Of a stretch of DNA of 64,000 nucleotides, positions 41 through 62,428 are shown piece after piece. The first letter of the stretch is position 1, and each line of letters opens with the position of its first letter. Source of the DNA: Protonemura montana (Eukaryota; Arthropoda; Insecta; Plecoptera; Nemouridae). The translations under genes and the position numbers were made by a program. The notes under the pieces are model-generated. The model was not told the DNA's origin, made no database searches, and saw only the letters and a program-made list of their open reading frames with translations. The stretch lies in NCBI GenBank assembly GCA_947568835.1, contig OX387606.1:20809225-20873224 (forward strand), in the 5' to 3' direction.

Positions 41-1322
41 TGTGCGCCTGATGGTGAGGAAGCCGCAAACTACTCGCTTTCAGTGGACTAGCTTTCTATC
101 ACCGTTCGCACCAGAACTCTGGCTCAGTATCCTCGGCTCCGTCATTTTGTCCAGTTTATTTTTGGCCTTTATCTACCACATCGGCTGCCACCACAGCCAA
201 GAAAAGCAAAGGCGACAGCAAAAGTTCTGCCTTACCAATGTGTTCTTTCACGTTCTTGGAATTTTCTGCGCTCAAGGTGAGCAGATTAAACACGAGACGG
301 TGGTCTTACAGGACTCTAATTAGCTGTTTAATGACCGCTTTAGGGAGTAGGCAGAAAACAAATCAGATAATTAAATACGCGCATAATTAAATCCAAATTT
401 GTTCACCCTTTCCCAAGGAACCCCATTCGAGCCCCGTGCGGTATCGTGCCGCACTGTGCTGCTCCTGGCGGGTCTTACCTCGACCGTGGTGTTGGCTGCC
501 TACTCAGGAGCACTAACCTCCTTCATCACCGTACAGAAGCTAGACCTGCCCTACGAGACCATACAGGAGTACGCCGATGACCCCAACTACCAACTGGAGA
601 TGTCGCCGGGCTCCTTTTGGCTCTATGTTGATGTAAAACGTCTGCGATAGGATGTGATTTGCATCATTTGCAATTTTGGCTATTTTCACTAGTCTTCTAT
701 TTTCAGAATCCACGTATTGATTTGAATCGCAAGTTATACGAACGAATGGCGCACAAAGTGAGTGACTTGCCAAGTAGTAAAAATTATGGGGCCAGCAAGA
801 TTTGCAATGAAAGAAATTACGGCTGGTTCAGCACAAATACATATAACAGTGAGTTTTTTAAATCTCTAAGCTGTGATCTAATTGAAGTGCCCGAGCAGTT
901 TATCGTCAACTCCGAGTCGATCATCATGACAAAGCACAGTCCATACCGACAGCTTTTCAATCGACAGTAAGTGCAAACATGTTAACCAAATTGGATCTGT
1001 GGCATTACAAAACCTATCCAATTGAATCCAATTAATCCAATTCAATTTCAGCGTGAGCTTTTTGCGTACCTCTGGCATTTTGGTAAACTTTGCTCGAACC
1101 TTGTGGAAAACGCACGAAACAGAACAGCAAAGTCCTTTGCCGAGAGCGAATTTGCAACAAGTATTGCCAGTAATTCTCATAATTTTGTCAGGACTCGCGC
1201 TAAGCGTAATGACAACACTCGGTGAAATGATCTACGCAAAGTTCGCCAGGAGAAAATGCTCGAAGGCAAATACGCGCTTGATCCCATTAAGTGGTTTTCC
1301 CGACAAACCGCCGATTTTCTAA
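41..1322 (+). CDS. IR gene 1, ionotropic receptor, 3' half only
   Basis: Last four exons of an ionotropic receptor, a ligand-gated cation channel of chemosensory neurons; the 5' half lies before the window. Exons: 41-276, 418-632, 707-966, 1052-1322, all GT-AG, with intron phases 1, 0 and 2 as in every other copy here. The first exon shown carries M1 (ELWLSILGSVILSSLFLAFI) and the start of the pore loop (FHVLGIFCAQG); the second carries the pore/M3 exon with AAYSGALTSFITVQ, the counterpart of the SYTANLAAF motif of glutamate receptors; the third is S2 with the paired-Cys region (SLSCDLIEVPEQF); the last holds M4 (VLPVILIILSGLALSVM) and a short basic tail. No breaks are seen. Closest relative in the window is gene 2: the M1 and S2 exons are nearly the same, while the M4 exon has drifted further. 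Confidence 0.9.
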
Positions 1323-1630
1323 ACAAATTTTTTCTATATAGTGTACAGGAAGAGGCAAAAACAATTCCACTTAGCACTCTAAGCCATTGTATACTGGACA
1401 GAGATGGAGGGGGACATCAACCAGGAAGCTAGACATTTACTATGTGCACACTTCCGGCACATCTAACAGATTCAATGTCGACACACAACACTCCGCGAAG
1501 ACCATCGGAAGGTGTTGACTTGTTGTCGATTTATTTTTTGTTTACAGCGCTTATAGCCTAGCGATAGTTGACTTTTATTTGAATTCCTGGAATTAAACAA
1601 GCTTACTCAATGCCTGCAGAAGCAATTGTT

Positions 1631-2600: not shown

Positions 2601-5147
2601 ATGTATAACTTAGTGGTTTTGGTTTTGGTTGTTTTTTCATCGTGCTATGCTCAGAAAGATGCGACGCATGATTGGCAAGAATATGCAAACTTCGTGTACG
2701 ACATGAAGATACGCTACAGCTCGGAATGCTTGTACGTTGTCAGCTCTCAAATGTTTTCGAGTGAGAAAACATTGACAGAGATTTGTAAAGTGCTTTCTAA
2801 AAAGTTGATTGCCACAACCAACCTTGGAGTTGTTGAAAGTGTTGACGAACGCCGCTGTCAGCGAAACAGACCACTTAACATTCTTCTTGGTGGAGAAATT
2901 TCAAAAAAAGATCTCAAAATGATACACATGGTATGTTTTATCGACCCTGCAATATTCGATATGTGTAAAAGTTCAAGTGGCTTAGTTTTTTTATATCTTT
3001 TTTTTACATCTCAAGTCGATTTTACTTTCTTACCTTTTATACAAAATATCTTGTATATATTTGTATTAGCATTTCTTTCCTTCTAGCTACCATCGTATCC
3101 TCGCTGGCTTCTAATTCCTGACACATTTGTTACACACGAACAACTTCTAGAAGAGATTTACGTACCATTTAACTGCGAGTTGATTGTCGCTGAACCGATC
3201 GAAACCGAACTACGACTGACCGAAGTCTATCAAGTGGCTGCTGACTTTCCTCTTCGAAAACACAACTTCGGACGCTGGAGCCAGCAAGATGGTCTCGTTT
3301 GTGTCAAAGAGTCGCTCTATGACAGAAGAGCCAACTTAGAGGGACTTGTTCTCACAGCAATTTGTCTCGAGGTAGAAACATTTTTTTTGTTTTCAATCTT
3401 ATTGTTTCGTCAAGGGTTACTGTAATAAAAAATTGCAACAGTTTCAGCCGGAAACGATTCTTTTACTAGATGAAAACCAAAAACTTTCTGTCGGAGGATT
3501 ATATGGAATGATTTGGAACTCTTTCGAAGAAAGCTTCAACTTTTCGTAAGAAATAAACTAGGATCTGTTATTTTAAAAAGCACTTACTGAAAGCTAGCTT
3601 CATTACAATTATCAATCAATTTCCAACAGGACAAAAATATTAGAAGCGTCTGCTCAGGATTTTGGATATCTTTCAAACGGTTCTTGGGTCGGAATGCTCT
3701 CTACGGTGGTCGACGGTTCCAATGACGTTGGAATAAACGGCTATACGTACGACCACGAGAGGATGAAAGCTGTCGACTTCCTCACCCCGATCACTAAGAC
3801 CACGTATAACAATGTCTTTAATTGATCCTTGTAATTACCGAATACGTGTTGACCTATTTGTTGTTTGTGATTTAATATTTACCTACAGAGTGCGTCTTAT
3901 GGTGAGGAAGCCGCAAACGACCCGCTTTCAATGGACTTGCTTCCTGTCACCGTTCGCATCAGAACTCTGGCTCAGTATCCTCGGCTCCGTCATTTTGTCC
4001 AGTTTGTTTCTGTCTTTCATCTATCACTTTGGTTGCCACCACAGCCTAGAGGAGCGGAGACAACAGCAAGAGTTCTGTCTGCCAAATGCCATCTTCAAAG
4101 TCCTCGGTATTTACTGCGCTCAAGGTGAGAGTTTAGGTGGTATGGTTTCTAGATTGCTATCCTTCGACCGCTTTAAAAATTGGTAGAAAATAACCGTGAA
4201 TGCTAATATATATATATGTTTATTCTCTCACTCTTTTCCCAGGTTTTCCTTTTGAGCCCCGTGCGGTATCATGCCGCATTGTGCTGCTCCTGGCGGGTCT
4301 TACCTCGACCGTGGTGTTGGCTGCCTACTCAGGAGCGCTAATCTCCTTCATCACCGTGCAGAAGCTAGACCTGCCCTACGATACCGTACAGGAGTACGTC
4401 GACGACCCCAACTACAAGCTGGAGATGTCGCCGAACTCTTTCTGGCTCTACGTTAATGTAAAATGTCTGCGAAAGGTTGCTGAATGGCGTGAGATTAATT
4501 ATTTCCCTTTTTGGACTAAATTTTGAAATATCTTTTTTCAGAATCCTCGGGTTGATTTGAATCGCAAGTTATACGAACGATTGGCGCACAGAGTGAGTGA
4601 CTTGCCAAGCAGTAAACATTATGGGGCCAGCAAGATTTGCAATGAAAGAAATTACGGCTGGTTCGCCACAAATACGTTTAGCAGCGAGTTTTTAAAATCT
4701 CTGAGTTGCGATCTAATTGAAGTGCCCGAGCAGTATATTGTCGACTCCGAGTCGATCATCATGACAAAGCACAGTCCATACCGACAGCTTTTCAATCGAC
4801 AGTAAGTGCAAACATGTTAACCAAATAGCACCTGTGACGTTACAACACTTATCCATTACACAACTGATTGCAGGCTGAACTTTTTGCGTGCATCGGGGAT
4901 TTTGGTAAACCTTGTTCGCACCATGAAAAAGACACACGAGATACAAAATGAAAATCCTTTGCCGAAAGCAAATTTACAGCAAGTTTTGCCCATATTTCTC
5001 ATCGTTTTGTCAGGATTCGTGCTAAGCGTATTGACAACGTTTGGTGAAATGTTCTACGCAAAGTTCGCCAAGAGAAAACGCGAGCGGGCAAACAGGCGCT
5101 TGATCCCATTCGTCAATTTGCTGGACAATCCCGCTGTCACTACTTAG
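2601..5147 (+). CDS. IR gene 2, ionotropic receptor, complete
   Basis: Reference gene for the array. Exons: 2601-2930, 3087-3371, 3442-3545, 3630-3803, 3889-4124, 4243-4457, 4542-4801, 4874-5147 (625 residues); intron phases 0,0,2,2,1,0,2. ATG 2601 opens a signal peptide (MYNLVVLVLVVFSSCYAQ). Residues 1-205 are the N-terminal region; exon 2 contains LTEVYQV and RRANLEGLVLTAICLE, typical of the stretch before S1. S1 spans exons 3-4 (NGSWVGMLS, then HERMKAVDFLTPI, where the Arg matches the residue that grips ligand in glutamate receptors). M1 is in exon 5, pore and M3 in exon 6 (AAYSGALISFITVQ), S2 in exon 7, M4 in exon 8 (VLPIFLIVLSGFVLSVL). Exon 4 is 6 nt shorter than in other copies. Probably an odorant or tastant tuning subunit in a dendritic membrane; the ligand is unknown. 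Confidence 0.9.
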
Positions 5148-6727: not shown

Positions 6728-6843
6728 TGTCCAAGTAGCTCAATGGTTTAGAGCAACACCCGCGATAGGTGGAGATCGGGGTTCGAGTCCCCGTTTGGGC
6801 ATACATTTTTGAGACGGTTATAGTGTTGATAATAAAAAAAAAA
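6728..6843 (+). repeat. tRNA-like sequence with A-rich tail (possible tRNA-derived SINE head)
   Basis: 6728-6801 folds as a tRNA: the 7-bp acceptor stem TGTCCAA/TTGGGCA pairs with one G-T pair, GCTC/GAGC forms a D stem, and CGGGG-TTCGAGT-CCCCG is a perfect T arm with a good B box; TAGCTCAATGG is a good A box. The anticodon loop has only a 4-bp perfect stem and a G where U33 is expected, and about 25 nt downstream comes an A-run (6832-6843). This favours a tRNA pseudogene or SINE head over a working tRNA. Confidence 0.5.
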
Positions 6844-8147: not shown

Positions 8148-8164
8148 ATTCGTTTCATATTTCA

Positions 8165-36890: not shown

Positions 36891-37506
36891 TGTTAACTTT
36901 ACACGTGTTAAAAAGTGTTTGAAGTGACAGCTTTGGTGTCGTTTTCAATTAAATCAGGTTCTATGACCAACTTGCGCGTAATATTTTAAGTAATCAACTA
37001 TAGATTAACTAAGAGGCAATAAGAATACTTTTCAATTTTTTTCTGAAAGTGAAGGTCCCAATATCAGGCAATCAATCGTTATTTTTAGGGAATGCAATGT
37101 TTGTAAATGGCTCCTAAAGACCCACATGTTTAGCACTTTTAAGCATTCAATAGAACGTATATCGTTGTGTGTTTTTCATTCTCAGAAGCAATTTAATCAA
37201 AATATGCAAAAACTAGCACAATAGTTGGTAGTGTAAGCCACTAGTGTAATAACTTTGTTGGTTGTTTGTGTTTGCTCTGTAGACTGCCATGTCAAATGTT
37301 TACACGACACAGTATTGACATGTGTACTCATATCAATATTTAGAGAGAAATAAAAAGGTTGAGCGGATCTAGTCACTTGAACCAGGTAATATTTCCAGGA
37401 ATGTAAAATTAAAAATGCGATTTCAGTGCTGAGGCAGAACTACGTTACTTAGCATATTGAAAAACCAAGCTTATGTGATTTTAGATAAGTTTAAAAAAAA
37501 TTAATT
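36891..37506. other. Intergenic region, IR gene 7 to gene 8
   Basis: Duplicate of 29878-30480 with substitutions and indels. No exon seen. Confidence 0.55.
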
Positions 37507-39894
37507 ATGAAAAGCATTTTATTCTTTTGTACCTTAATATTTGGAAGCTTTTCGATAGAGGGGTATTTTACGACAAACCAGTACGTTGAGCTAAGTTTGG
37601 CAATAAAGGAATTATATCACTCAGAATGCATATTTCTAGAACACTTTGACTTGTTCGCCTTCGATTATCAAGCCGTGGAGATCACAAAAGCTCTTTCTAG
37701 AAATGCAACAAGTACAGGGCATGTCAATGCGTTACACTTAAACGTCACTGTCAATGACTTCAAGTGTCGCGGGAATAAACCAATGTTTATATTGTTTGGT
37801 TGTTTGAAAACCCTGGATATCTCAAAGTTTATTTCCAAGGTAAGACGCACCTCAAGAGGACGTTACGTCGGTTACTTGAAACGAGCTACTTTTCACAAAA
37901 CTCCCATGTTTATTTGCAAGCTGTCATCGTACCCGAGATGGGTGGTGTTCCTATGCCCATCTCAAACTACCGAAGAGTTTTTCCAACACATATACGTGCC
38001 ATTTAACTGCGAGGTTTTGGTTGCGCAAACCGTCGGCTTCGATATCAAACTAACAGAGGTTTACCAAGTTGCTGAAGGCTTTCCACTCAATGATCGCCCC
38101 TTTGGAAGCTGGAGCCAGGAGCAGGGATTGAACGCCACTGCAATGTCACTGTACGAGAGGAGGCGTGATCTCGAAGGAGTGGTCATCAAGGCGATATGCA
38201 TGGAAGTAAGAGTTAAAACAGAACTGTCAAATGACTTGTTTCTGATACGTGGTTTTGGTAGTAACAGTTCTCTAATTTTCTGCAGTTTGAGCCAGAGTCC
38301 ATCATGATTCGCGACAGCAACGGGAACATATCAGTGCATGGACTGTACGGAACGGTGTGGAGATACCTGGAAACCCGGCTCAACTTCAAGTAGGAACGCT
38401 CATCCCAAAGGAGAGTCTTATCATAACAACCGCACCTTGATTGGACTTTCCGTGAATTTTTAGGACTGTTGTGATAAATTCAACGGACAAATATGGAGAA
38501 TTTGGCGCGTTGGTAAACGGGACATGGCACGGGCTAGTTGCCAACGTGTTCCACGGAGAGGTGGACGTCGCCCTGAACGCCATGACTTACCAGAACGAGA
38601 GAATGGACGCCGTCACGTTTCTTTCCCCGATAACACACTCGAGGTAGGTTAAATCTGATCAAAGGTTCACATTTCCTAAAATTATCAAAATTAATTTATG
38701 ACGAAATTGTCTGTTTGTTAAGGGTGAACTTGATTGTACGAAAACCAACCAGCGTGCGGTTCCAATGGACCAGTTTCCTGTCACCGTTTGATTCCTCTCT
38801 GTGGCTCGTGGTCCTCGCTTCGATTCTCCTATCAGGCGGTTTGCTAGCGATGTCGTATACAATGGGAACCACTGAACGAATGCAACAGCGTAATGGAAAT
38901 GAGTTCCGGTTGGGCAGCGCTCTTTTTCACATTTTTGGCCTCTATTGTACTCAAGGTTCGATTCAAAACAGCTATAGAGAACGAATTTAAAACAATAAAG
39001 ATCACCCATATTCAGGCCGATCGAAAAGATAATCAAATATAATTTTTTAATTGTCTTCGAAGGAGTTCCTCTCGAGCCCCGTGCGGTATCATGTCGCACG
39101 GTGATACTCTTGTCGGGTCTTACCTCGACCGTGGTGTTGGCTGCCTACTCAGGAGCGCTAACTTCCTTCATCACCGTGCAGAAGCTAGACCTGCCCTACG
39201 AGACCGTACAGGAGTACGTCGACGACCCTAGCTACAAGCTGGAGATGTCGCCTAGTGCATTCTGGCTTTATCTTAAGGTAAGTTCCTCTCTTCCTTGGAG
39301 AGTTAACAATTTGCAAACGTATGCTCGAAGCCACACGTTTATATTATAGAATCCTCGCAATGATCTTTACCGCACCCTGTACCAACGAATGATTGACGGG
39401 GCAGACGACATGCCTTCTAATTGGTGGCTGGGAGTAAAGAGGATGTGTCACTCCAAGACCCCCTACGGATGGATTGCTCAGTACCATTTCGTCGATCGGT
39501 TCGTGCGAGCCAACAGCTGCGACTTCGTTGCCGTGCCCAATCAACTGCTGGTAGACACCGAGTCGATTATTGTCTCGAAGGGTTTCCCGTATGTAGAGCT
39601 CTTCAATCGCAAGTAGGTTACTAACATCGTTTGCATTAATCAATTCATATTGGAAGCCGTGGAATGGGATAGGAAATCCACTTCTGTCGCAGCTTGCAGC
39701 ACATGAGAGTGTCTGGGGTATTGCATCGCATTCACCAGCTCGCATGGCCGGCGTCTCTAACCAATCTGGACGTCCCCCTGCCAAACGTGCAACTCTACCA
39801 AGTGGTCCCCATCATCGCCGTGCTGATCACCGGGATGGTCATCAGTGGGCTGCTGGTCCTGGCCGAGACGGCCTGTAGGTCCAATTATCACTAG
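37507..39894 (+). CDS. IR gene 8, ionotropic receptor, complete
   Basis: Exons: 37507-37839, 37921-38205, 38286-38389, 38464-38643, 38723-38955, 39063-39277, 39350-39612, 39693-39894 (604 residues). Signal peptide MKSILFFCTLIFGSFSIEG. Intron 1 (37840-37920) is 81 nt, divisible by three and stop-free, so exons 1 and 2 also form one continuous frame of 266 codons; GTAAGA/TTGCAAG borders and the other family members favour splicing. S1: NGTWHGLVANVFHGEVDVAL and NERMDAVTFLSPI (Arg kept; Asp replaced by Thr after it). M1: LWLVVLASILLSGGLLAMSY. Pore/M3: AAYSGALTSFITVQ. S2: SCDFVAVPNQLLVDTESIIV. M4: VVPIIAVLITGMVISGLLVL with tail ETACRSNYH. It gives the intact version of the 5' part of pseudogene 6. 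Confidence 0.92.
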
Positions 39895-42818: not shown

Positions 42819-45800
42819 GACGACCAACGCTTCTAATCGTAGCGTACATGTTAGCAGTTCATGCTGAACAAAGTGTCTTCACTGCTCACCAATACACGGG
42901 AGTTATTAACGACATCAGAGGAAGGTTCAACGCCGAGTGTTTGATTCTCGTTTTTTCAAATTCACAGACACAACATTCTCTGATTGCCGAAATTACTAAA
43001 GAGCTGTCCAAAATGGGAGTTAAGATATCGTTTTTAGAAGTATCTAGCCTGCAAAGCACAACTACAAACAATGTCTGTGAAAAGAATCGACCAATCTACG
43101 TTCTTAATTCAGATGCAGAATCAAAAGATCACGTGGAAACCATGCACAAGGTAAGTTCTTCCGCCAGGATTGTTTAGATTATGAGATTAAAAAACACTCA
43201 CAAGAACCTTCTTATTAAAAATTGTGTTTAAAGCTGCCGTCCTACCCTCGATGGCTGATATTCCTCGACGCGTCCCAAACAATCGACGACTTCTTTCTCA
43301 ACATCTACGTGCCGTTCGACTGCGAGGTGCTGGTCGCACAAAACCTCGGTGCCGCCATCCAACTGACCGAGGTGTATCAAGTGACCGAAGACTTGCCTCT
43401 GCGCAAGCGCCACTTCGGCACGTGGACGGCCGAGACAGGTCTGCACGCCACTGTGTTGGCCTTGTATGACAGGCGAAATGACCTTGAAGGAATTGTCTTT
43501 AAAGCAGTCTGCATGGATGTAAGGATATTTTGTCATTTAAAAATAAATTTTCATATAGTCTCAGAGTCACTTAATTACTAGTCGTGTCTGCTGATTGTTT
43601 CCGATTGACTTTCAGTATCAGCCCGATACGATTCTGAAAAGAGACGACAGCCAAACAGTGTCAGTCCACGGACTTTACGGTTTGGTGTGGCAAATTCTGG
43701 AACGACGACTTAATTTCTCGTAAGAGTTTTTTACAAATCTAGTGAAAGCGATTCGTAGGACAGGGAAATAACTAGTTTGCATCTAAAAACCTTCTAGGAC
43801 AGTTGTGGAAGTCTCGACCGTGAAGAACGGCGTTTTTGGCTCTCTTATCAACCACACCTGGCATGGAATGATTGCAAGGGTACTCTCCGGGCACGCAGAC
43901 GTCTCCGTGAACGGGTACTCCTACAAGTCTGATCGCATGGCGGTGGTCGACTTTCTGGTTCCACTGAGAATCACGAGGTAACACACTCAAATCATTTAAG
44001 TTCTGAACGTACAGACGCCGAAGGTCTAAGTTATTGAATTGCAATGTTTTTCGACGCTTGAAGCCGTGTCCGTCCCTGTCGGTAAAGTTATTAAGTTTTA
44101 ATAGAAGAAGGGGAATCAATGTGTCAGAACAAAGCACACTCTTTGCAAAAAAAATCATTAGCCATGAGGGGCGCACAAGATAGACGTTCTTTTCACAAGA
44201 AGGTATAACTCTGTGGTATAACGTAAACAACAGGATCCAGCCACTCATGCATGATATAGAATTATTTTATACGCTTCCTTGCCTTCACCATTTCTTTAAG
44301 AAAACTTGACTTACGTTTGATGGTTACTCTAGATTTAGCGCAGTTTTGCTTATCTTTAAAGACCTTACGGAAGTGTGTGTTTCCAATGCGGTAATTTGTG
44401 ATAGTGTCTACTAAAATGTTTCAGAATCAGCCTTGTTGTGAGAAAGCCAAGCGCTACTCAGTCTTACTGGAAAAGTTTTCTCACGCCATTTAATTTGCAT
44501 CTCTGGCTGGCGATCCTCGGTTCGATTCTCGTGGCAAGCGTTTTGTTAACGTGCACGTCATTCTTTGTGTCTCGCTACCGCGAGCAGGAAGAACGGAGAG
44601 TGTCGGATGAGACACGACTTTTTTATTCCTTCTTTCACGTGTTTGGTATATATTGCACACAAGGTAAGTCTGTGCATGTACCAAAGAGCTCTATAGAAAG
44701 TAATTTCTAGTGACGCCATGTCTAGCATATCGTGGATTTTTATACAGAGATTTACTTTAAATTGTTCGGAATTGATAACCTATCCGAAGGTCCATCATTC
44801 GAACCCCGTGCGGCGTCTTGTCGCACGGTGCTGCTCCTGGCGGGTCTTACCTCGACCGTGGTGTTGGCTGCCTACTCAGGAGCGCTAACCTCATTCATCA
44901 CCGTGCAGAAGCTTAACCTGCCCTACGAGACAATACAGGAGTATGTCGACGACCCAAACTACCAGCTGGAGATGCCACCGAACGCGTTCTTGCTCTACCT
45001 AAATGTGTGAAACAAGAATTACATTACTGGAGTTGCATGGACCTGACCAGAGCTTGCCTCACTCCATGTCTCATTTTGTTTCAGAACCCTCAGAACGACC
45101 TGTATCGAGGTTTGGCCAAGCGATTGGAGGGAAAGTTGAATGAAATGCCTCTAAACAAACAAGACGGGTTAAGAAAATTGTGCGAATCTAAGAGACCTTT
45201 CGGATGGTTTGCTGTAGTCGACTTCGATGATAGTTTCTTGAGGTCGCTTAGTTGCGAAATCATGCCCGTGCCAGGTCACTTGGTATTTGATACAGAATCT
45301 ATCATTATTACTAAGAAGAGTCCTTTCACGCAAGTCTTGAATCACTAGTAAGTTCAAGATAGAGCGGTTGCTCAGGTATTTTAATATATTAACAGTCAAT
45401 CAGTTTGGTGCCGATATTTCACTATCACTTAAAGTAAACAACCGACCATACCCAAATAAAACATGTTTTGATTGTTTGCTGCCAATATATATAGTATATT
45501 TTCACCCTATACTATATATGTTGTACACTGTGGCTTCTTGCCTTTGCAATACTTTTTTTTTCATATATTTTATTTTATATATGTAAATATATATATATAA
45601 TATACAATATATTTACAGACATTTTACATACAAATTATGTAAATTAAATTAGTAATTAAAATTAAACCATTAAATTCTGTACTAACAATTAGTTTTGTAA
45701 AGATAATAATTCTTCTTGATGTATGTATGGATAATTCTATACTTTATATTAAAACCACCTAAAGTTTTATAAAAGCCACAACACTTGCTAAATTCAAGAA

Positions 45801-47635: not shown

Positions 47636-50600
47636 ATGAGAAGAGCAACGCTTCTCATCGTAGCGTGCATGTTCGTAGTTCAAGCTGAACAAAGTGTCTT
47701 CACTGCTCACCAATACATGGGAGTTATTACCGACATCAGAGGCAGGTTCAACGCCGAGTGTTTGATTCTTGTTTTTCCAAATTCACTGACACAACATTCT
47801 CTGATTGTTGAAACCAGTAAAGAGATGTCCAAAAAAGGAGTTAAGACATCATTTCTTGAAGTAACTAGGCTGCAAAAAACAGCTAAAATCCATACCTGCG
47901 AAAAAAATCGACCAATCTACGTTCTTAATTCAGATACAATAACAAAAGCTCACATGGAAACTATCCACAAGGTAGGTAATTTAAAATTTTGCTCTCCTTG
48001 TTTATCTTTTCCTGGCAGAATTTTAAAGATTTTAAGCTACATTTGAGAAATCCCTATTAATGTTTTTTTAAGTGATGTTAACAACGACGCAGTATGTTAA
48101 CAACAAGCACTGTAGCACTAGTTTTATTGCAATGTGGCATAAGTGGTTAAATGGTAATGACGAAATTTTAGTCCTCCACAGAAAAGGGAAAGCCTGGTGT
48201 CAGCACAAAGCATGCTCCTGTCTATAAATGCCATCAGAATTCAACCGCTTGTACAACAACTGTCAACCTTAACCTGACAGTCGAGATCAAAGAGTGTCAA
48301 GCAGATCAAGAACAACTTATCTGCCAATACCTCCAACCTATCTTCTGAACGGAACTAGTCATTAGTAAGATGGTTCACCATCCAATACCTGACTCAGTAA
48401 AATTTTGCCTAACCATTAATCTCTGAAAAGAACCTTCTTATTAAAGTTTGTGTTTAAAGCTGCCGTCCTACCCTCGATGGCTGATATTCCTCGATGCGTC
48501 CCAAACAATCGACGACTTCTTTCTCAACATCTACGTGCCGTTCGACTGCGAGGTACTGGTCGCACAAAACCTCGGTGCCGCCATCCAACTGACCGAGGTG
48601 TATCAAGTGTCCGAAGACTTGCCTCTGCGCAAGCGCCACTTCGGCACGTGGACGGCCGAGATTGGTCTGCACGCCACTGAGTTGGCCTTGTATGACAGGC
48701 GAAATGACCTTGAAGGAATTGTTCTTAGAGCAGTTTGCATGGAAGTAAGGCTGTCTTCTCATTTTTTTAAGTCATCGTTTTAATGAATCAACATCATCCA
48801 ATATCCAGTTGTGACGTGTGATCCTTTGTGATCCCACTTTCAGATGTATCCCGAGACAAAAATAAAGAGAAATGACAACCAAACAGTGTCAGTCCGCGGA
48901 CTATATAGTTCGGTTTGGGCAAGTTTGGAACGACGACTTAATTTCTCGTAAGAGTCTTTTTACTATAGGTTTAAAGCAATTCTAAGGAAGGAAAAAAAGT
49001 TACTTTTAAATACCTTCCAGGACAATTGTGAACGTCTCGACCACAGAGAAAGGCGTTCTCGGCTCTCTAAGGAACGGAACCTGGCACGGAATGATTGCTA
49101 CGGTTATTTCTGGGCAAGCGGACCTCTCCCTAAACGGGTTAACCTTCCAGTCTGAGCGTCGGAAGGTGGTTGACTTTCTGGCTCCGATAAAAATTTCCAG
49201 GTAACACACTCAAATTATTTATATTTTCAGACTCATTAAAAGCTTCTCATTAACATATTTGTTGTGCCAATCGTTGCACTGTTTGCACTTTTTACTGTAG
49301 TGGGGTTTGTTGGTCGTTGCACAACGTTCCAGGAGAGAGATTCATTTCACTCCCCCCCCTGGGATGTTTAATACTTTTGTTGAAGAGGTACAAGAGGAAC
49401 GTTCAGTAATCATCTTAATTTTCAAGGAAGGAGCTGCTCAAACAGCATGGTTCTACCACTAGGGCATGATGTTGACTTAAATCAATTGCCTCAATCATTA
49501 TAACCTATCTATTGAACGTCACTGGACACCTCTGAATGAAGAAGTGTTGCACTTGTGATTTTGAAAAGATTCGTGAAACTATCGCAGCTAAACGTGAAAG
49601 TGTATCCTACAATGTTTCAGAATCAGCCTTATTGTGAGAAAGCCAACCGCTACGCAGTTTCACTGGAAAAGTTTCCTCGCGCCATTTAGTTTGCATCTTT
49701 GGCTGGCGGTCATCGGTTCGATTCTCGTGGCAAGCATTTTTTTAACGTGCACGTCATACTTTGTCTGTCGCTGCCAAGAGCAGGAAGAACGGCGAGTGGT
49801 GGATGAGACACGACTTATCCATTCCTTCTTTCAGGTGTTTGGTATATATTGTACTCAAGGTAAGTGTATTTAATTTTTACAAGACTTTATAGATAGTAAT
49901 AGCTAGAGTTGCAGTGCTTAGCAAGTCTTGTCGGTTTTAATTTAGGTGAAAGAGATTTACTTCAAAATCATTGAAATTACACCCATATCCCAAGGCAGCT
50001 CATTCGAACCCCGATCTGCGTTCTGTCGCACTGTGCTGCTCCTGGCGGGTCTTAGTTCGACCGTGGTGTTGGCTGCCTACTCAGGAGCGCTAACCTCCTT
50101 CATCACCGTGCAGAAGCTCGACCTGCCCTACGAGACCATACAGGAGTACGTCGACGACCCCAACTACCGGCTGGAGATCCCTCTGAACGCGTTCTTGTTG
50201 TACTTAAAAGTATGGAATTAAGTGACATAATTTGTATTTAATTGTGCTCTGAGCTTGATTTGACAAGTAAAATCCCCGTCCCATTTAATTTCAGAACCCG
50301 CGAAACGATCTGTATCGAGGTTTGTCCAAGCGATTGGAGGGAAAGTTGAGTGAAATGCCTCTAAACAAACAAGACGGGTTAAGAAAATTGTGCGAATCTA
50401 AGAGACCTTTCGGATGGTTTGCTGTGTTCGACTTCGATGATAGTTTCTTGAAGTCGCTTAGTTGCGAAGTCGTGCCCGTGCCAGATCACTTGGTTTTTGG
50501 CATGGAATCCATGATTATTACTAAGCAAAGTCCTTTCACACATCTCTTAAATCGCAAGTATGTTTATTACTGTGCATTTGCCCATCTTATTTCATAGACA

Positions 50601-51425: not shown

Positions 51426-54400
51426 ATGTGTTATAAAAAAGCGTTATTTTTGTGTGTTCTAGTTCTTGGGGATGAGGTGTTTTCTCTTAATTGTGTAACA
51501 AAACAATTCGCAAGCTTGAGTCAAGACGTTTCAAATTTATTCCACTCAAAGTGTGTTTTTCAAATTCATACAAATAGTTTAGCTCATCAGTTGCAAAATG
51601 TTGAATTAAAAAAAAGGCTTTCCCAATTGCCAACGTTGTTTTTTTCTCTCGATTTTAACGACGTTGCAATGGATGCCCCTGAATTCAGTTGCAACAATAA
51701 CAGGCCAACTATTGCATTGTTGTCTTCTAGTATTATTAGAATAAACATTACATTCATGAGAGTGGTAAGTTTAAATAAACACGCAATGTTACAATGATAT
51801 TCGTATTTAAAAAGGCAATTAATTAAAAGAACAGTGAACATTTTATTTAAATTATTAAGTTTCCTTTATTTACCTTTAAAAATTGTATTCATTTAAGCTG
51901 CCTTGCCATCCTCGATGGCTCATATTTCTCAATACATCCCAAACGTTGGGAGAGTATTTTCACAAAGTCTACATTCCGTTCAACTGCGAAGTGCTTGTCG
52001 TTCAAGATCTAGGCTCCGTCTTCCAACTGACAGAGGTTTATCAAGTAGGTGTTGAAACGCCTCTTAGGAGTCACATCTTTGGAACTTGGAGTCCTGAAAC
52101 CGGTCTTCTCGTCTCCAAACTCTCCCTGAACGAGAGAAGGAACAACCTGGAAGGGTTGGAGTTGCGGGCAGTTGGTATGGATGTAAGTGAACCTCTTAAA
52201 GGTTTAAGGAATTGATTTCCGTTTCATTGCACTCTTTCTATATTAATGTGCATGATGCACTCCCTATTAAGCCCTGTAATTTGTTTTCGCAGCTCATACC
52301 TCTTTTCACTTTGGTCCGAGACAGCGAAGATAAGATTGTTGTAACCGGGCTTTACGGAATGGTTTGGAACGTCCTGGAGAATCAGCTTAATTTCAGGTTA
52401 GAGTTGTATAAATTATTAACGGATTACAGTCCAAGCATTTGTCACTGAATTTAGTTCGCCTCGTGCACAGAAAATTTCCTCAGTTTGTGACTTAAGGAGA
52501 CAAATTTTCTCAACGGTGTAAAAAATTTTATCTTTTTCATTAAAGAGAAGGTTAATTATCTTTGTATGAATTTTTACTGGAATCGCCAAAATCGTTACGA
52601 AACAGGTTCCCACTTAAGAGAATCGGTCCCTAACATTGTTTGCCGGTTTTTTTCGGTAGACTTCCTGGGATGCCTGATATTGATTTTTGTTTGTAAACTA
52701 TTGTAGTTTTTTTTCGTTGAATGGACAAGAAAAAAAAGCGAAACGCGACAATTAGATCTTAATTAAAACGATACTTTGACTAGTAAAAATTACACCCTAC
52801 TAAATATGTTAAAGAGAGAGTGGAATCTGATGCTCCGTAGTCGATTGGTCATTATTGGGCTTTAAATAATTAAGTTATAGCCGTAAATCTACACGTTCAG
52901 TGTTTTGCAACCGATTTCCTTTTCTTCAAAAGAAGGTTAATAACTGCACGAAGACCTGTTCCCACGAGGGACGACTGTGGTACACCGTACAAGACTGAAC
53001 AAGAGTTATTTGCTGCGTGATGCAATTTTGCTGGTAGAAAAATCTGTAAGAACTAGTATATGAAAGTGCGTGCAAGGACCCTGTACTCCAAACCATGGAC
53101 CCCAAAGAGCACCCCATATGTTTTCCTTCCCAAAATGGGCCACATGCAAGACTTTATGGATCTTGGGGGTCCGTACAGACCACTTTAGTAAGCCATGCTT
53201 TATTGTGTACTTTAAAATAACAAGGCGTCCATGGAGGTGCCAGGATTGCTCTGCGGGCTGCATTCAGGAGCCGGTTCCAAATTGATTTCTTATATTCCTT
53301 TTTTAAATGTTGTTAGCACCAGTGTGATGAATTCTACCAAAGATATTGAGGAATACGGGTCTTTGATTAATGGTTCTTGGAACGGCTTGGTTTCCATGGT
53401 GGTGTCCGGCGAGGTGGACCTCGCTTTGGCCGATTTTTCATACAATAAAGACAGGATGATGGCAGTGGACTACTTGGCGCCTATCAACCTCGAAAGGTAA
53501 CAAAAAACACCAAACACGAACCCAAATCAATTTATGTGTGTACAACGTGCAAAGTCAGTTTTCAACTATGCTTTGTTGCGGCAGATCTTAAAAGAAATAT
53601 TAACATCATGTTTCAACATTTCAGAGTACGTTTGTTCGTAAAAAGACCTGTCAGCGTTCGGTTCCAATGGACTTGTTTCCTATTTCCATTTGAGTCGCGA
53701 CTCTGGCTGGTGGTTCTGGCTTCGATTATCCTCTCCGGCGGCTTGCTTGCGTCATCATATATGCTTATTGATCGTAAACAAGCAGAAAATCATAGTCTAG
53801 ATGAAAATATTCACTTACTGGACGCTGTTTTTCACGTCTTCGGTCTCTACTGCTCTCAAGGTGTTAAAAGCCCCCAGAAAATTTACTTCAAAAGTATTTC
53901 ACTAGCAACATAATGATTTTCATACAACCGATTCTTGCCTAGGGGTCCCGGTGTTGCCCCGTGCGGTATCATGCCGCACGGTGCTGCTCCTGGTGGGTCT
54001 TACCTCGACCGTGGTGTTGGCTGCCTACTCAGGAGCGCTAACCTCCTTCATCACCGTGCAGAAGCTAGACCTGCCCTACGAGACCATACAAGAGTACGCC
54101 GATGACCCCAACTACCAGCTGGAGATGTCACCTATTGCATTCTGGCTGCATTTCAATGTATGTTGAACGTGCCAGCCTGCAGAGCATACTTATTGTGGTT
54201 GGTCTCTGGCCCACAATATCTCCAGCAAGCTCTCAATATTGTCTCTGTCATAGGACCCAAGGAACGATCGCGACCGGGCCGTTAACGCACGCTTAGTGGA
54301 CCGCGCCCATGATTTACCCATCAACAGCCACATCGGATTGCAAAAGATCTGTGATGCAAAGGAACCGTTTGCATGGATTTCAACTGAAGATCTTGGGAAA

Positions 54401-55834: not shown

Positions 55835-58473
55835 ATGAGAAGACCAACGCTTCTCATCGTAGCGTTCATGTTCGCAATTCATGCTGAACAAAGTGTCTTC
55901 ACTGCACACCAATACATGGAAGTTATTAACGACATAAGAGGCAGGTTCAACGCCGAGTGTTTATTTCTCGTTTTTTCAAATTCACAGACACAACATTCTC
56001 TGATTGTCGAAACCAGTAAAGTTTTGTCTAAAACGAGAGTTAAGACATCGTTTTTAGAAGTGAGTAATTTGCTAAAGACAGCTACAAGCCTTGTCTGCGA
56101 GAAGAATCGACCAATCTACGTTCTTAATTCAGATGCAATAACAAAAGATCACGTGGAAACCATGCACAAGGTAGGTTCTTCAGAGTCTTGCACTTTTTGT
56201 CTTTCCTGTTTTGCCAGAATGTACAGGCTTTAGAGATATATAAAAGCAAATTTTCGTTATTTTATTGATTCGATATTTTAAACAACGCACTGTTTAGTCA
56301 ATTTGGAGCCTATGCCACTCGTCCAATGAAGTTGATTAATCAGTGGGTAATGCTGAGGTTACTCTTGCTTTGCCTAAAAGTGAAAGTTCTATCTAAAAAT
56401 TCTATCACGAGGATCTGCTTGTAATGATTTGTGTTTAAAGCTGCCGTCCTACCCTCGATGGCTGATATTCCTCGACGCGTCCCAAACAATCGACGACTTC
56501 TTTCTCAACATCTACGTGCCGTTCGACTGCGAGGTGCTGGTCGCACAAAACCTCGGTGTCGCCATCCAACTGACCGAGGTGTATCAAGTGTCCGAAGACT
56601 TGCCTCTGCGCAAGCGCCACTTCGGCACGTGGACGGCCGAGACTGGTCTGCACGCCACTAAAATCGCATTCTACGATAGGAGGAGCGACCTCGAAGGACT
56701 GGTCTTGAAAGCAATCTCGCTTGAAGTAAGAAACTTTGCAGTGGTCCAAGACCTTGATTAGGCGTAACAATAAAACTAGCTGTGTTAATTCTAGGGCAGC
56801 TTTGCTAATGAAAAAAAAAATCCTGTGTGTATTACAGTTCATAAATCCGGATTCTTCATATCCGTTAGACCTAACAGAGAGGATGAATATGGAAGGAATA
56901 TACCACATCATCTGGAAATACTTGGAACAACGCCTCAATTTCTCGTAAGGCGAGAAAGGAGAAACCTAAAGAAAATCATTGAGACAAGTAGTAGATTGAG
57001 ATTTGTGACTAGTGACATTCCGGGACTCTAAATGTTGCAGGACATCTAATGTCATAAGACACCAAGGAAACATTCCACGGGGTTTCCTGAAGAATGGCAT
57101 TTTCAACTATATGGTCAACATGACTGCGGGCAACGAGGTGGATGTGGCCATCGACGGATTTGCATATCAAGACGAACGAATAGACATCGTTGACTTTGCA
57201 ACTCCAATTAAACGCTCTCGGTAATCACAATAATGTTGTTCATGGTCAGCAGCGAGGTTGCTACCAAACCCAAACTCGACATCTCTTTCCCAGGGTGAGT
57301 CTGATTGTGCGAAAACCAACCACCGTGCGCTTCCAGTGGACCAGTTTCCTGGCATCGTTTGTCCCTCGTCTATGGCTGGGAGTGATCGGCTCGCTGGTTC
57401 TCTGCGGGGCTTTGCTGACGCTCTCCTACCAAGTGGGACGCCGTCAAGGAGCGGAGGAGGAGGCGCGAGAAGACCACGAGTTTCAGCTCCTCAGCTCGCT
57501 TTTCCACGTGTTTGGGCTGTATTGCTTACAGGGTTGGTCTAACTCAGGTGACATGAACCAGGTTCAGATTCAATTCTTACAATTTTAATCTTTTGGTTGT
57601 GTTTCGAAGGGGTTCCTATGTTGCCCAGTACGGTGTCCTGCCGCACTGTGCTACTCATGGCGGGTCTTACCTCGATCGTGTTCACGGCCGCCTACTCAGG
57701 AGCGCTAACCTCCTTCATCACAGTGCACAAGCTTGACCTGCCCTACGAGACCATACAGGAGTACGTCGACGACCCTAACTACCGGCTGGAGATGTCGCCG
57801 AACGCGTTCTGGCTATACCTTAGTGTACGTATTTACTTAAATAACAGTCTCAAAATTTAGCAAACTTGCAAAAAAAAAAAGGTTACTTAAGAGAGAACCC
57901 TGCTTTAGGATCGGCGCAATGAAATGAAACGCACACTGTTCAAACGCTTGTCCCATCGGCTAAACGAACTGCCGACAACAAGGTGGGACGGCGTGAAAAA
58001 GTTGTGCAACTTTACCTCACCCTACGGCTGGGTCGGCTCCTTCAGCTTTGGAGCCAGCTTCTTGAAAGACCTGAGCTGCGAGATCGTCACGGTGCCAGAT
58101 TACTTCTCAATAGACAGTGACTCCATTATCCTCCCGAAAAAAAGTCCGTATAAGAAGCTCATCGACTACAAGTATTTGAGATTGTTTGTTACTTTTTGTA
58201 TTCCTAGTTCACTCTGGACGATATTACTGCTGATCCTCAATATCCCTTTGCAGCCTGATCTCTATGCGGGAGACTGGAGTTTTGCAGCGCTTGTCCCTCC
58301 TGGCTTCGCCGCCTCCTTTGGTGAACGCGAGCGATCCCCCGCCAAGCCTGAAGCTCTACCAAGTAGTCCCCATCCACGCCGTGCTGATGTTTGGGATGGC
58401 GCTCAGTAGCCTGGCCATCCTTGCTGAGTTGTCGCTGTCTCGAAAGCACGGTCTTTGTCAGAAATATCTTTGA
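55835..58473 (+). CDS. IR gene 13, ionotropic receptor, complete, mosaic
   Basis: Exons: 55835-56170, 56441-56725, 56838-56944, 57041-57220, 57294-57532, 57610-57824, 57909-58171, 58254-58473 (614 residues). ATG 55835 begins the leader MRRPTLLIVAFMFAIHAEQ; in-frame ATG 55742 would add 31 residues without homology, so the later start was chosen. Exons 1-2 are nearly those of genes 10 and 11 (PSYPRWLIFLDASQTIDDFF), but exons 3-8 are distinct: exon 3 is one codon longer, S1 has KNGIFNYMVNMTAGNEVDVA and DERIDIVDFATPI (Arg kept), M1 LWLGVIGSLVLCGALLTLSY, pore FHVFGLYCLQG, M3 TAAYSGALTSFITVHK with unusual MAGLTSIVF, S2 LSCEIVTVPDYFSIDSDSII, M4 VVPIHAVLMFGMALSSLAIL. The gene looks like a fusion of a subgroup C front end with a divergent channel half. 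Confidence 0.9.
56270..56400 (+). repeat. Decayed SINE-like copy in intron 1 of IR gene 13
   Basis: AACAACGCACTGTTTAGTCA, GCCACTCGTCCAATG and AATCAGTGGGTAATG follow the order of GACGCACTGTTTTGACA, GGCACTGGTCTAATGG and GAATGAGTGGGATGA in the 40545 element. Confidence 0.45.
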
Positions 58474-59594: not shown

Positions 59595-62428
59595 ATGAGG
59601 TGCCAAGTACCTTTGATTGCGTGCGTTCTTGTTATGGTACATGATGTTTGGTCGTATCATTTCGTCGCTCAGCAAATAGCAAGCATAAGTCATGATGTTT
59701 CGGGGTTGTTTCACTCAAAATGTTTGGTCTTGGTGCACACTGATAGCTTAGCGCAACAAGAACAATTGATCGAAGTGAATAAATTACTGATGAAGAGGCA
59801 CACTATGGTTGGTAGCTTGAGCATTGGCAACTTAAACCACACTCCTCAAGATGTTAATATTATTGGCGGCAGACACTTGCTTGTTATGAAGTCAGAAGAA
59901 ACAACTAAAAATGATTTCACTTTGTTGCGTGTGGTAAGTTGAAGTATAGTAAAGTGACACTTGTCCTAAGCTGGCGCAAAAGTGTTACTTTTTATATTTG
60001 TTTTTATACCAGCTGCCTTGCCACCCTCGATGGCTTATATTCCTCAACACTTCCGAATCGCTGGAAGAGTATTTTCACAAAGTCTACATTCCGTTCAACT
60101 GCGAAGTGCTTGTCGTTCAAGAACTAGGCTCCGTCTTCCAACTGACAGAGGTTTATCAAATAGGCGTTGAAACTCCTTTAAGGAGTAATATCTTTGGAAC
60201 CTGGAGTTATGAAACCGGCTTTCTCGTCTCCAAACTCTCCCTATATGAGAGAAGGAACAACCTGGAAGGTCTAGAGTTGCGGGGAGTTAGTATGGAAGTA
60301 AGTGAAGCTGCATTTTCATACCACTTTGGGTCTAAAAGCGCTTATCAGAATTTTTATATTTGCTTCCAAAAAAAATTGTTTTTAAATTTCTGCTCCAGCT
60401 CAAGCCATTTTCTACGATGGAACGCGACAGCAAGCAAAATATTTTGGTGAGAGGTTTCTTCGGAATAGTTTGGAACGTCTTGGAAAGTCAACATAACTTT
60501 AAGTATGAATTATTTTTGTTCATACTTTTTTCTCATGATATAACAGTGTAAAAAATATAACCATAAGTAAATAGCACCGGTTTACCCATCGTAATTCCGC
60601 TTTCCTCACAGCTTCGGTCAACGCATAGCCTGATAACGTTTGCTGCAAACGTTGGTAGCAATGGAAAGGAAGTTAGACTAGAATGTTTGCTAGCTTGTAA
60701 CCATGATCATTTACAACGATCATTTAATGATTCTTATTTTTGTTTTTCAGTACAATTTTAACCAATTCCACTAAAGGTTTCGAGCAGTATGGGTCTCTGC
60801 GAAACGGGACGTGGAACGGTTTGGTATCAATGCTGGTTTCTGGTGAGATGGACGTAGCTCTGAATGGATTTGCTTACCACAAAGACAGGATGGACGCAGT
60901 CGATTATCTCATGCCAATCACCCATACAAAGTACAACTCACACTTATATCACGTCTTAAAACATTGTATGTGTAACGCTTTGTTGCAACGTTTATTACTG
61001 AATCCGTTTTAAGAAAATCATTTACTTGGTGCAAACGAAGATCCAAAAATTAATATTTTAATTTCACTGTCAGCAGTTTAAAAAGAGCTAGACAGCACAA
61101 GAATCCCAAAAGTTTCGGTCACGCACAACTAAAACTTGGTCTGATAATTCCAGACTCTACCTTTACGTTAAGAAACCATCTAGCGCGCGTTTCCAGTGGA
61201 CAAGTTTCCTATCGCCTTTTGAGACTAAACTCTGGCTTGTGGTCCTCGCTTCGATTCTCATCTCCGGTGGTATGCTAGCGACGTCACACAAAGTAGAAAG
61301 CCGTGCAGGAACAAGAATGCAGAACAGTGAAGATGAAATTACCACTGTGACTGGTCTGTTTCACATCCTAGGACTGTACTGCACACAAGGTTTGAATCCT
61401 ACTTAACATTTTGTTTCCACCAAACTACCCTGAAAGCCCTAAGAACATAAGCTAAACAAGATAACAAAGCGTTTTACATTTAATTTTGGTATTTCACCAA
61501 TCGCGTGTTCCCAAGGGGTCCCCATACTGCCTCGGGAGGTGTCTAGCCGCACTGTGCTGCTCCTAGCGGGTCTTACCTCGACCGTGGTGTTGGCCGCCTA
61601 CTCAGGAGCGCTAACATCCTTCATCACCGTACAGAAGCTCGACCTGCCCTACGATACCATACAGGAGTACGTCGACGACCCCAACTACCAACTGGAGATG
61701 ACGCCGAACACCTACTGGTTCCAGTTTAACGTAAGTGGTACACTGTAGATACGCCTTAGCTCATAGAAAACCGGTACTGATAAGAACAAAGAGTATTTTA
61801 GCATATTATTGTTCTTCGTTTTCAGCGGCCCCGCTCTGCCAGCGAACGAGGAGTTCACGACAGACTGGTGGATCACCTGCAAGAGTTACCACCCAACGGG
61901 CTCATTGGCTTTCAGAAGATCTGTGACTCGAAGAGACCCTATGGTTGGATCGCTGCTAGCTACATTGCAAGTCTGGTGAAAATCAGTTGCGAAGTAGTGG
62001 CTGTGCCCAAAATGTTGGTCGCTTTGACAGAGTCCATGATATTGACTAAACGGAACCCATACACGCAGCTTTTCAAACACAAGTGCGTACAAAACTAAAA
62101 TAAACTGCAATACAATTCACGTTGCGAAATACCGTTGTGGTTGAAGAGAAAATGATTTTCTTGGTGGCCTTGCACTTTGATGCATTCCTTAAGATCTGTT
62201 TTCTCCTGCAGACTGCTGCTCATGCGTAACACGGGTGTCCTGCAACGTATCACGCGTGCTACGTGGCCCGCCGCCCCCGTCAACGTAGACAAAGCTTTTC
62301 CCGGGGTCAAGTTGTTCCAGATCGCTCCTATCTTTGCGATCCTTGGAGCAGGAATCGCATGCAGCCTGTTACTTTTTTGCGTAGAACGTTCCCGATTTGG
62401 GTGGCTCCAGCCTCAGTCCGTCAATTAG
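59595..62428 (+). CDS. IR gene 14, ionotropic receptor, complete
   Basis: Exons: 59595-59933, 60013-60297, 60399-60502, 60751-60930, 61154-61389, 61516-61730, 61826-62082, 62212-62428 (610 residues). Signal peptide MRCQVPLIACVLVMVHDVWS. Exon 2: PCHPRWLIFLNTSESLEEYF, with YERRNNLEGLELRGVSME. S1: NGTWNGLVSMLVSGEMDVAL and KDRMDAVDYLMPI (Arg kept). Exon 5, which starts KLYLYVKKPSSARFQWTSFL, has M1 LWLVVLASILISGGMLATSH and FHILGLYCTQG. Pore/M3 exon: SSRTVLLLAGL, with Ser in place of the usual Cys, then AAYSGALTSFITVQ. S2: KISCEVVAVPKMLVALTESM. M4: IAPIFAILGAGIACSLLLFC. Exon 7 opens RPRSASERGVHDRL where most copies have NPRNDL. Sister of gene 12; between them lies gene 13 of a different type. Confidence 0.9.

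What the first reader, a model, noticed from the sequence alone, without database searches (positions are those of the whole stretch)
418..61730. Exon 6 (pore and M3) is homogenised at DNA level while other exons diverge
Exon 6 copies at 418, 4243, 25049, 28715, 32025, 35729, 39063, 44790, 49995, 53943, 57610 and 61516 share long identical strings, including synonymous sites (for example GTCTTACCTCGACCGTGGTG and CTACTCAGGAGCGCTAACCT), even between genes whose other exons are only distantly alike (2, 12, 13, 14). The exon is also more GC-rich than its surroundings. Purifying selection on the protein does not explain shared silent sites, so repeated exon-sized gene conversion (possibly GC-biased), or selection on the DNA or RNA itself, is implied.
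Basis: partly seen in the sequence, partly recalled or inferred. Interest (0 to 1): 0.82.

Follow-up and report, generated by a model that had tools for sequence, protein, structure and literature searches.

The report
Pore-exon conversion island in receptor array
In a cluster of insect-type smell/taste receptor genes, copies have overwritten one another in one short stretch that encodes the channel gate while the ligand-binding parts drifted apart, and that shared stretch also let two genes recombine into a hybrid.

Summary
Median synonymous difference (NG86 pS) over 66 gene pairs is 0.32 in E6 against 0.70-0.81 in the other seven exons (36-66 pairs each); in 53 of 53 distant pairs E6 is lower than both neighbours.

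Interlocus gene conversion explains it best. E6 is not slow by nature: its pS is 0.71-0.73 to paralogs C3 and U1 (C13, D1, D2 intermediate), and in three recent duplicate pairs it matches its neighbours. PHI finds recombination in E6 (p = 0.0002), but this weakens to 0.011 without the hybrid gene G6, and the core alone is then not significant.

Corrections: the island is about 147 bp inside the exon (core pooled pS 0.18, edges 0.59 and 0.73); E1, E2 and E8 are also shared, in subgroups; GC bias is not shown.

Additions: a 7.2-kb duplication has both breakpoints in E6, making G6 a G8/G4 hybrid. A second IR cluster has its own island, in E5. The process is known from protocadherins; my searches showed no report for IRs.

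The parts
418..632 (+). G1 E6 (homogenised core 453-599)
4243..4457 (+). G2 E6 (core 4278-4424)
25049..25263 (+). G4 E6 (core 25084-25230); left breakpoint of the 7.2-kb duplication
28715..28929 (+). G5 E6 (core 28750-28896)
32025..32239 (+). G6 E6 (core 32060-32206): recombinant exon, G8-like to exon position 80, mixed 101-148, G4-like from 167 (212 matches neither)
   Evidence: site list
35729..35943 (+). G7 E6 (core 35764-35910)
39063..39277 (+). G8 E6 (core 39098-39244); right breakpoint of the 7.2-kb duplication
44790..45004 (+). G10 E6 (core 44825-44971)
49995..50209 (+). G11 E6 (core 50030-50176)
53943..54157 (+). G12 E6 (core 53978-54124)
57610..57824 (+). G13 E6 (core 57645-57791)
61516..61730 (+). 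G14 E6 (core 61551-61697)
37507..39894 (+). Reference IR gene G8: E1 37507-37839, E2 37921-38205, E3 38286-38389, E4 38464-38643, E5 38723-38955, E6 39063-39277, E7 39350-39612, E8 39693-39894
   Evidence: spliced model; Pfam Lig_chan, Lig_chan-Glu_bd, IR75A_N
25046..32242 (+). First copy of segmental duplication (94.6% to 32022-39280); both ends lie in or at E6
32022..39280 (+). Second copy of the segmental duplication
30481..33356 (+). G6, hybrid gene at the duplication junction (E2, E4, E5 G8-like; E7, E8 G4-like); broken in E1 and E3
43234..43518 (+). G10 E2, shared at low pS with G11 (48460-48744) and G13 (56441-56725)
   Evidence: pS .07-.21
26190..26367 (+). G4 E8, shared at low pS with E8 of G5, G6, G7 and partly G8
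   Evidence: pS .00-.15 (with G8 .47)

Best explanation
A tandem array of IR75-like ionotropic receptor genes has undergone interlocus gene conversion, most likely repeatedly, and at least one unequal crossover, in a ~147-bp island inside the exon that runs from just behind the pore through M3 to the start of the second ligand-binding lobe. Shown: the twelve copies are far more alike at silent sites in this island than in the outer ~33 bp at each end of the same exon and in the neighbouring exons, and more alike than their introns; the exon is not generally slow; one duplication has its breakpoints in the exon and left a hybrid gene. Inferred: that conversion still goes on; and that the island persists because protein constraint on pore/M3 held DNA identity high enough for recombination and each conversion renewed it, whereas ligand-binding exons fell below the threshold or were protected by selection for different ligands. 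Expected effect: uniform gating machinery, diverging ligand-binding lobes, and a joint between lobes S1 and S2 at which halves can be swapped.
For: (1) E6 median pS .32 vs .70-.81 elsewhere; 53 of 53 distant pairs. (2) Not an intrinsically slow exon: E6 pS to non-array paralogs C3 .71 and U1 .73 (U1 ends about 2.1 kb upstream of the window and is outside the pool); in a second IR cluster E6 pooled pS is .68 over 5 pairs; in three genes at C1:29.5 Mb E6 pooled pS .31 is like E5 .34 and E7 .33 (3 pairs). (3) The ratio of E6 to E5+E7 pS is 0.42 in 53 distant pairs but 1.00 pooled over 3 recent pairs. G5-G7 have 0 of 244 silent differences in E1-E5 but 4 of 56 in E6 (Fisher p = .001), and for 4 of 4 both variants occur in other array genes. 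(4) PHI, all 12 genes: E6 p = .0002-.0008, core .0012-.0038; E5 .24, E7 .76, E8 .16. (5) GENECONV-like run test on 8 representatives with C3, U1 and C13 added: 18 of 28 array pairs significant, all in E6; third positions only, 11 of 28, all in E6; outgroup-outgroup pairs 0 of 10, G13 against each of three outgroups 0 of 3. (6) Duplication breakpoints in E6 and hybrid G6. (7) Longest exact in-register match in distant pairs: E6 median 41 (min 22) vs medians 7-11 in E2-E5, E7, E8, though maxima reach 108 in E2 and 71 in E8.
Against: PHI depends partly on G6: without it E6 p = .011 and the core p = .20; with 8 representatives E6 p = .046, core .062, and E8 becomes significant (.010). The run test without outgroups found no E6 tract among 8 representatives (6 of 28 pairs: 4 in E8, 2 in E5); with all 12, 19 of 66 pairs, of which 7 in E6 and one spanning E5-E6. 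I attribute this to loss of polymorphism where all copies are alike, but it is a negative result. In G5-G7 the E7+E8 rate equals the E6 rate (p = 1), and in G1-G2 E6 (.20) is below E5 (.49). C13 keeps extra silent likeness in the core (71% of shuffled expectation against 85-99% in its E2, E4, E5, E7, E8); D1 and D2 cores are at 84%; at fourfold sites the C3 core is at 81% and D2 at 73%. So mild silent constraint or codon bias may contribute. Windows from E6 codons 11 and 16 (outgroup pN .32.28) are as homogenised as more conserved ones from 26-36 (.08-.14), so the identity-threshold explanation is incomplete. No sister species or population data.
Confidence: 0.85

Rival explanations
1. Purifying selection on silent sites of E6 (splicing enhancers, codon use, small-RNA target or RNA structure) keeps the DNA alike without conversion.
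For: C13, D1 and D2 show mildly reduced core silent divergence (71-84% of shuffled expectation; at fourfold sites C3 81%, D2 73%); array E6 GC3 is high.
Against: By pS, C3 and U1 cores are at 93% and 95% of the shuffled expectation; two other IR clusters have no E6 dip; recent duplicates show no pooled reduction in E6; the edges of the same exon are not conserved; the one core folded (G6) has z = 0.54; no Rfam family reaches its gathering score there.
Confidence: 0.05
2. One past episode: E6 was spread through the array by a single wave of replacement and has since only diverged by mutation and ordinary duplication.
For: All 12 copies are alike; recent duplicates have E6 as diverged as their flanks, as after an old wave; without G6 the core gives no significant PHI (p = .20).
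Against: E6 as a whole stays PHI-significant without G6 (p = .011); 106 of 276 core site pairs are incompatible in the full set; 4 of 4 G5-G7 differences use variants present elsewhere in the array; diversity grades at the edges instead of stepping.
Confidence: 0.1
3. GC-biased gene conversion drives the island's composition as well as its homogeneity.
For: Array core GC3 .77 vs edges .60; minority silent variants in the core: 10 S to W over 26 S-majority sites, 2 W to S over 7 W-majority sites; differences to C13 are W(C13)/S(array) 7 vs S/W 3. C13, outside the pool, lacks the core-over-edge rise (.61/.68).
Against: C3 (.53/.36), U1 (.73/.68), D1 (.86/.73), D2 (.80/.68) and the C1 genes (.70/.59), none of them homogenised with the array, also have core above edge. 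Per-site S-to-W and W-to-S variant rates are similar. Counts are tiny and unpolarised.
Confidence: 0.25
4. Assembly artefact (collapse or copying of one exon).
For: Tandem arrays are hard to assemble.
Against: All 12 copies differ, nucleotide identity .78-.98, with different flanking introns.
Confidence: 0.01

Closest known systems
Regional gene conversion in vertebrate clustered protocadherins (fugu: PMC1852091, passages seen)
   Same: Tandem receptor array; one region of each gene homogenised at synonymous sites among paralogs while the recognition region diverges; raised GC3 in the homogenised region.
   Different: There the homogenised region is the 3' part of the variable exons; here it is a ~147-bp island in the middle of an eight-exon ion-channel gene, between the ligand-binding lobes, and the GC3 rise cannot be tied to conversion.
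Gene conversion in Drosophila divergent IRs (PMC4122928, passages seen)
   Same: Same receptor superfamily; conversion signals found, possibly affecting gene-tree topology in two IR ortholog groups.
   Different: The passages report small overall effects; those I saw describe no array-wide island at the pore/M3 exon and no hybrid gene.
Unequal crossing-over making hybrid genes in tandem arrays (recalled, e.g. opsin genes; no call)
   Same: Crossover inside a homologous exon duplicates the intervening genes and leaves a hybrid at the junction.
   Different: The hybrid G6 is broken in E1 and E3, so a functional hybrid is not shown.

Membership tests
Ionotropic receptors, IR75-like | Ligand-gated channel domain | tested here: met
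   G8 hits Pfam Lig_chan 1.6e-12, 47.9 bits, cutoff 30.8; the 60 PDB rows shown of 360 are ionotropic glutamate receptors, best GluD1 2.5e-27. Only G8 of 12 genes was scanned.
Ionotropic receptors, IR75-like | Split ligand-binding domain around the channel | tested here: met
   Lig_chan-Glu_bd 215-309, Lig_chan 325-431, SBP_bac_3 257-553 in G8
Ionotropic receptors, IR75-like | IR75a-type N-terminal domain | tested here: met
   IR75A_N 28.2 bits, cutoff 27; narrow margin, one gene (G8) scanned
Ionotropic receptors, IR75-like | Orthology to a named IR75 gene and co-receptor use | not testable with these tools
   no annotated insect genomes in the collections
Regional (interlocus) gene conversion in a tandem array | Silent divergence in one region far below flanks among paralogs | tested here: met
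Regional (interlocus) gene conversion in a tandem array | Absence of matching constraint against paralogs outside the pool | tested here: met
   C3 and U1 near saturation by pS; C13, D1, D2 at 71-84%, so partial
Regional (interlocus) gene conversion in a tandem array | Reticulation within the tract | tested here: inconclusive
   PHI p = .0002-.0038 in E6 and core with all 12; without G6 E6 .011 but core .20
Regional (interlocus) gene conversion in a tandem array | Species-wise rather than ortholog-wise grouping of the tract | not testable with these tools
   G000 has no relatives here
GC-biased gene conversion | GC3 rise specific to converted tract | tested here: inconclusive
   array core .77 vs edges .60, but core exceeds edges in 5 of 6 non-array sets too; E6 is the highest-GC3 exon in C13, C3, D1 and not in U1, D2, C1

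The most novel reading that the evidence does not exclude
Self-sustaining conversion islands in the channel-forming exons are a general feature of IR clusters: each cluster settles on its own island (M3 exon here, M1-to-pore exon in the C1:30.33-30.35 Mb cluster), which keeps the gate uniform and acts as a recombination joint at which S1 and S2 ligand-binding halves can be reassorted into new receptors.
Probability: 0.3. Interest if true: 0.72.

Novelty: new member of a known kind. Interest (0 to 1): 0.5.

Why it matters
IR gene trees built from whole proteins or from the channel domain would be misleading for such arrays, because pore/M3 reflects the pool and not descent. It also gives a concrete case of how a receptor family can keep a common gate while ligand-binding parts diverge, with a recombination joint placed between the two ligand-binding lobes. 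A second cluster with its own island in a neighbouring exon makes it testable whether this is a rule for tandem IRs.

Tried and rejected
RNA structure as cause: the E6 core of one gene of 12 (G6) folds no better than shuffles (z = 0.54); Rfam at gathering scores over the window finds only a tRNA at 6729. GC-biased conversion: not separable from other GC3 patterns. Dispersed donor copies of E6: a genome-wide DNA search at E up to 0.001 found the 12 array copies plus C13 (the tool calls such counts lower bounds). 'E6 is slow by nature': rejected by other IR clusters and by C3 and U1. Run test without outgroups: mostly E8 tracts, no E6 among 8 representatives, told as evidence against. First protein search of the genome was given a wrong reading frame by my mistake; repeated in frame, and nothing rests. 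Scripts failed on errors; rerun, changed, as 18 and 41 (41 uses E5-E8, since G1 has no E4 in the window). Models for G1 E1-E4 (upstream of the window), G3 and G9 (remnants) and the 5' end of G4 were not completed; some outgroup exons (for example E1 of C13, E1-E2 of C3, E1-E2 and E8 of D1 and D2) were not found and are missing from those comparisons.

Literature: searches. 'gene conversion' + 'ionotropic receptor' + 'concerted evolution' gave 2 papers; with exon and tandem instead of concerted evolution, 6. Passages by find were seen of PMC4122928, PMC1852091, PMC7944917 (yolk proteins), PMC7257214 (GC content) and PMC11526382 (a reference only); PMC6121795, PMC6444547, PMC5792627 and PMC11236287 were seen only as listings. 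Nothing seen describes a pore-exon island in IRs; most subscription papers are not in the library.
Full report
What the window is. The window is C4:20809225-20873224 of a 258-Mb genome in 34 contigs with abundant TTAGG repeats (6912 forward and 6102 reverse overlapping 30-mer matches), which fits an arthropod; the species is not known. It holds a tandem array of receptor genes on the + strand. The spliced protein of gene G8, the only one scanned, matches Pfam Lig_chan, Lig_chan-Glu_bd and, narrowly above cutoff, IR75A_N, and the solved structures listed are ionotropic glutamate receptors. So I take these to be IR75-like ionotropic receptors. E6 starts just behind the pore, contains M3 (AYSGALTSFITVQ aligned to SYTANLAAFLTVS of GluD1) and ends in the second ligand-binding lobe.

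The observation. Over array pairs the median NG86 synonymous difference is .76.72.77.81.70.32.79.74 for E1 to E8. Of 66 pairs, 53 have E5 and E7 both above .6; E6 is lower than both in 53 of 53. Saturation depends on composition, so I shuffled synonymous codons within each sequence: for distant pairs the E6 core is .187 against .552 expected (0 of 500 shuffles as low); E7 .806 against .826, E4 .786 against .803, E8 .716 against .761, E5 .747 against .818, E2 .641 against .816 (100 shuffles each; E1 and E3 not run). E2 is thus also below saturation, from its subgroups.

The tract is smaller than the exon. Splitting E6, the central 49 codons (exon positions 36-182) have median pS .18, the first 11 codons .61 and the last 11 .77 (pooled .18.59.73). 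Nucleotide diversity in 15-bp windows falls from about .7 in the introns to .01-.14 in the centre and rises again.

Conversion versus constraint. If silent sites of E6 were constrained, E6 should also be conserved against relatives outside the array. By pS, C3 and U1 are at .71 and .73 (core 93% and 95% of the shuffled expectation). C13, D1 and D2 are at 71%, 84% and 84%, and at fourfold sites C3 is at 81% and D2 at 73%, so a small contribution of codon bias or constraint, or for C13 a late split or exchange across chromosomes, remains possible. In another IR cluster (C1:30.33-30.35 Mb, five genes modelled) E6 pooled pS is .68 over 5 pairs; in three genes at C1:29.5 Mb E6 pooled pS .31 is like E5 .34 and E7 .33. 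A slow exon would also be slow in recent duplicates. Instead the E6 to flank ratio is 0.42 in the 53 distant pairs and 1.00 pooled over the three recent pairs G1-G2, G5-G7 and G10-G11; singly, E6 is above E5 and E7 in G5-G7 and G10-G11, and in G1-G2 (.20) below E5 (.49) and near E7 (.18). G5 and G7 have no silent difference in E1-E5 (0 of 244 sites) and four in E6 (of 56); for each of the four, both variants exist in other array genes. E7 and E8 of this pair are equally diverged as E6, and the 1.2-kb stretch around E1-E5 is itself 100% identical, probably a separate recent conversion.

Reticulation. The PHI statistic (own implementation, 5000 permutations) with all 12 genes is significant in E6 (p = .0002-.0008) and its core (.0012-.0038) and not in E5, E7 or E8 (.24.76.16). 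Without the hybrid G6, E6 stays significant (.011) but the core does not (.20); with 8 representatives E6 is .046, the core .062 and E8 .010. A GENECONV-like permutation test of shared runs gave no E6 tract among 8 representatives when only array genes were used (6 of 28 pairs significant, in E8 and E5), and 7 E6 tracts plus one E5-E6 tract among 19 significant of 66 pairs with all 12. Sites identical in all copies drop out of that test. With three outgroup paralogs added so that those sites count, 18 of 28 array pairs were significant, all in E6, and 11 of 28 with third positions only, again all in E6; 0 of 10 outgroup pairs and 0 of 3 G13-outgroup pairs were. Conversion is thus well supported; that it is repeated and ongoing is likely, not proven, and a single past wave is kept as a rival.

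Crossing-over in the same island. Window 25046-32242 matches 32022-39280 at 94.6%. Identity rises from about .58 to .87-.95 at E6 of G4/G6 and collapses within E6 of G6/G8. Site by site, G6 agrees with G8 through exon position 80, is mixed at 101-148, and agrees with G4 from 167 on, one site (212) matching neither; its E2, E4, E5 are G8-like (pS .03.00.07) and its E7, E8 G4-like (.11.00). The simplest history is an unequal crossover between E6 of G4 and E6 of G8 that duplicated the genes between and left G6 as the hybrid. G6 is broken in E1 and E3, so this does not show a working hybrid receptor.

Other exons. Homogenised exons also occur in subgroups: E1 and E2 in G10, G11, G13 (pS .07-.21) although E3-E5, E7 and E8 of G13 are far from those of G10 and G11 (.62-.86); E2 in G4, G5, G7 (.00-.06) and G12-G14 (.26); E8 in G4-G7 (.00-.15) and G12-G14 (.30). 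The array is an exon-wise patchwork; E6 is the one piece shared by all 12.

A second island. In the C1:30.33-30.35 Mb cluster, the 5 distant pairs among P2-P5 have pooled pS .69 in E4.68 in E6 and .70 in E7 (E7 from 2 of 5 pairs), but .41 in E5, with .20-.27 in windows over its codons 41-75 against .89 in its first 15. The fifth gene, P1, does not share it: its four pairs have E5 .61-.65 and E6 .62-.74. P2-P3 are recent duplicates. I chose these pairs after seeing the BLAST result. A third cluster (C2:24.10 Mb, three loci) was compared only by BLAST. So one other IR cluster has an island in the neighbouring channel exon.

Why here. Across 81 overlapping fifteen-codon windows, constraint against outgroups (pN to C3 and U1) correlates with array pS (Spearman .49.25, p = .04 without E6; windows overlap, so p values are optimistic). 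Distant pairs share exact in-register matches of median 41 bp in E6 against medians of 7-11 elsewhere, while E6 matches to U1, C3, C13 and D1 have medians of 10-12 and to D2 18.5. This fits a self-reinforcing identity threshold for recombination, but windows from codons 11 and 16 are weakly conserved and strongly homogenised, so it is an inference only.

Base composition. Array E6 has GC3 .72 against .41-.64 in other exons. E6 is also the highest-GC3 exon in C13, C3 and D1, but not in U1, D2 or the C1 genes. Core exceeds edge in 5 of 6 non-array sets, C13 being the exception. GC-biased conversion is left open.

Comparison with the known. Regional gene conversion with raised GC3 is documented for fugu protocadherin clusters (PMC1852091, passages). 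For Drosophila chemosensory families, conversion was detected (8 of 14 tested ortholog groups, two IR groups with possible effect on the tree) and judged of small effect on turnover rates (PMC4122928, passages). In the searches listed under Tried and rejected I saw no report of an array-wide pore-exon island in IRs. I file the process as a new member of a known kind.

Noticed in passing
12101-16192: 147-bp tandem repeat, about 17 copies in one orientation followed directly by about 11 inverted copies, making a large palindrome inside the receptor array.
   Followed up: no
18173-19879: 58-bp tandem repeat, about 29 copies at 97% matches.
   Followed up: no
22731-23662: Tandem repeats of 218 and 290 bp ending close to where gene G4 begins in E2; no E1 of G4 was found.
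   Followed up: partly
27092-28290 and 34108-35307: About 1.2 kb with 100% identity between G5 and G7 (E1 to about the start of E5) inside a duplication otherwise about 95% identical: a probable very recent long conversion.
   Followed up: partly
L073-L075, L066, L059 (C1:30.33-30.35 Mb): Second IR cluster with a homogenised 3' part of E5 (pS .20-.27) among four of five genes and diverged E4, E6 and E7.
   Followed up: yes
40883-42177 and 5614-5853: Receptor remnants: G9 keeps pieces of E1 and E8, with at most a scrap of E2; G3 an E1-like piece.
   Followed up: partly
8903-9637 (-): Reverse transcriptase fragment, Pfam RVT_1 3.9e-22, a retroelement remnant in the array gap.
   Followed up: no
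6728-6802: tRNA-Ser (CGA) in the gap after G2; could be a gene or a tRNA-derived repeat.
   Followed up: no
G000 whole genome: About 13,000 overlapping TTAGG 30-mer matches; those listed on C1 include places far from the contig ends.
   Followed up: no
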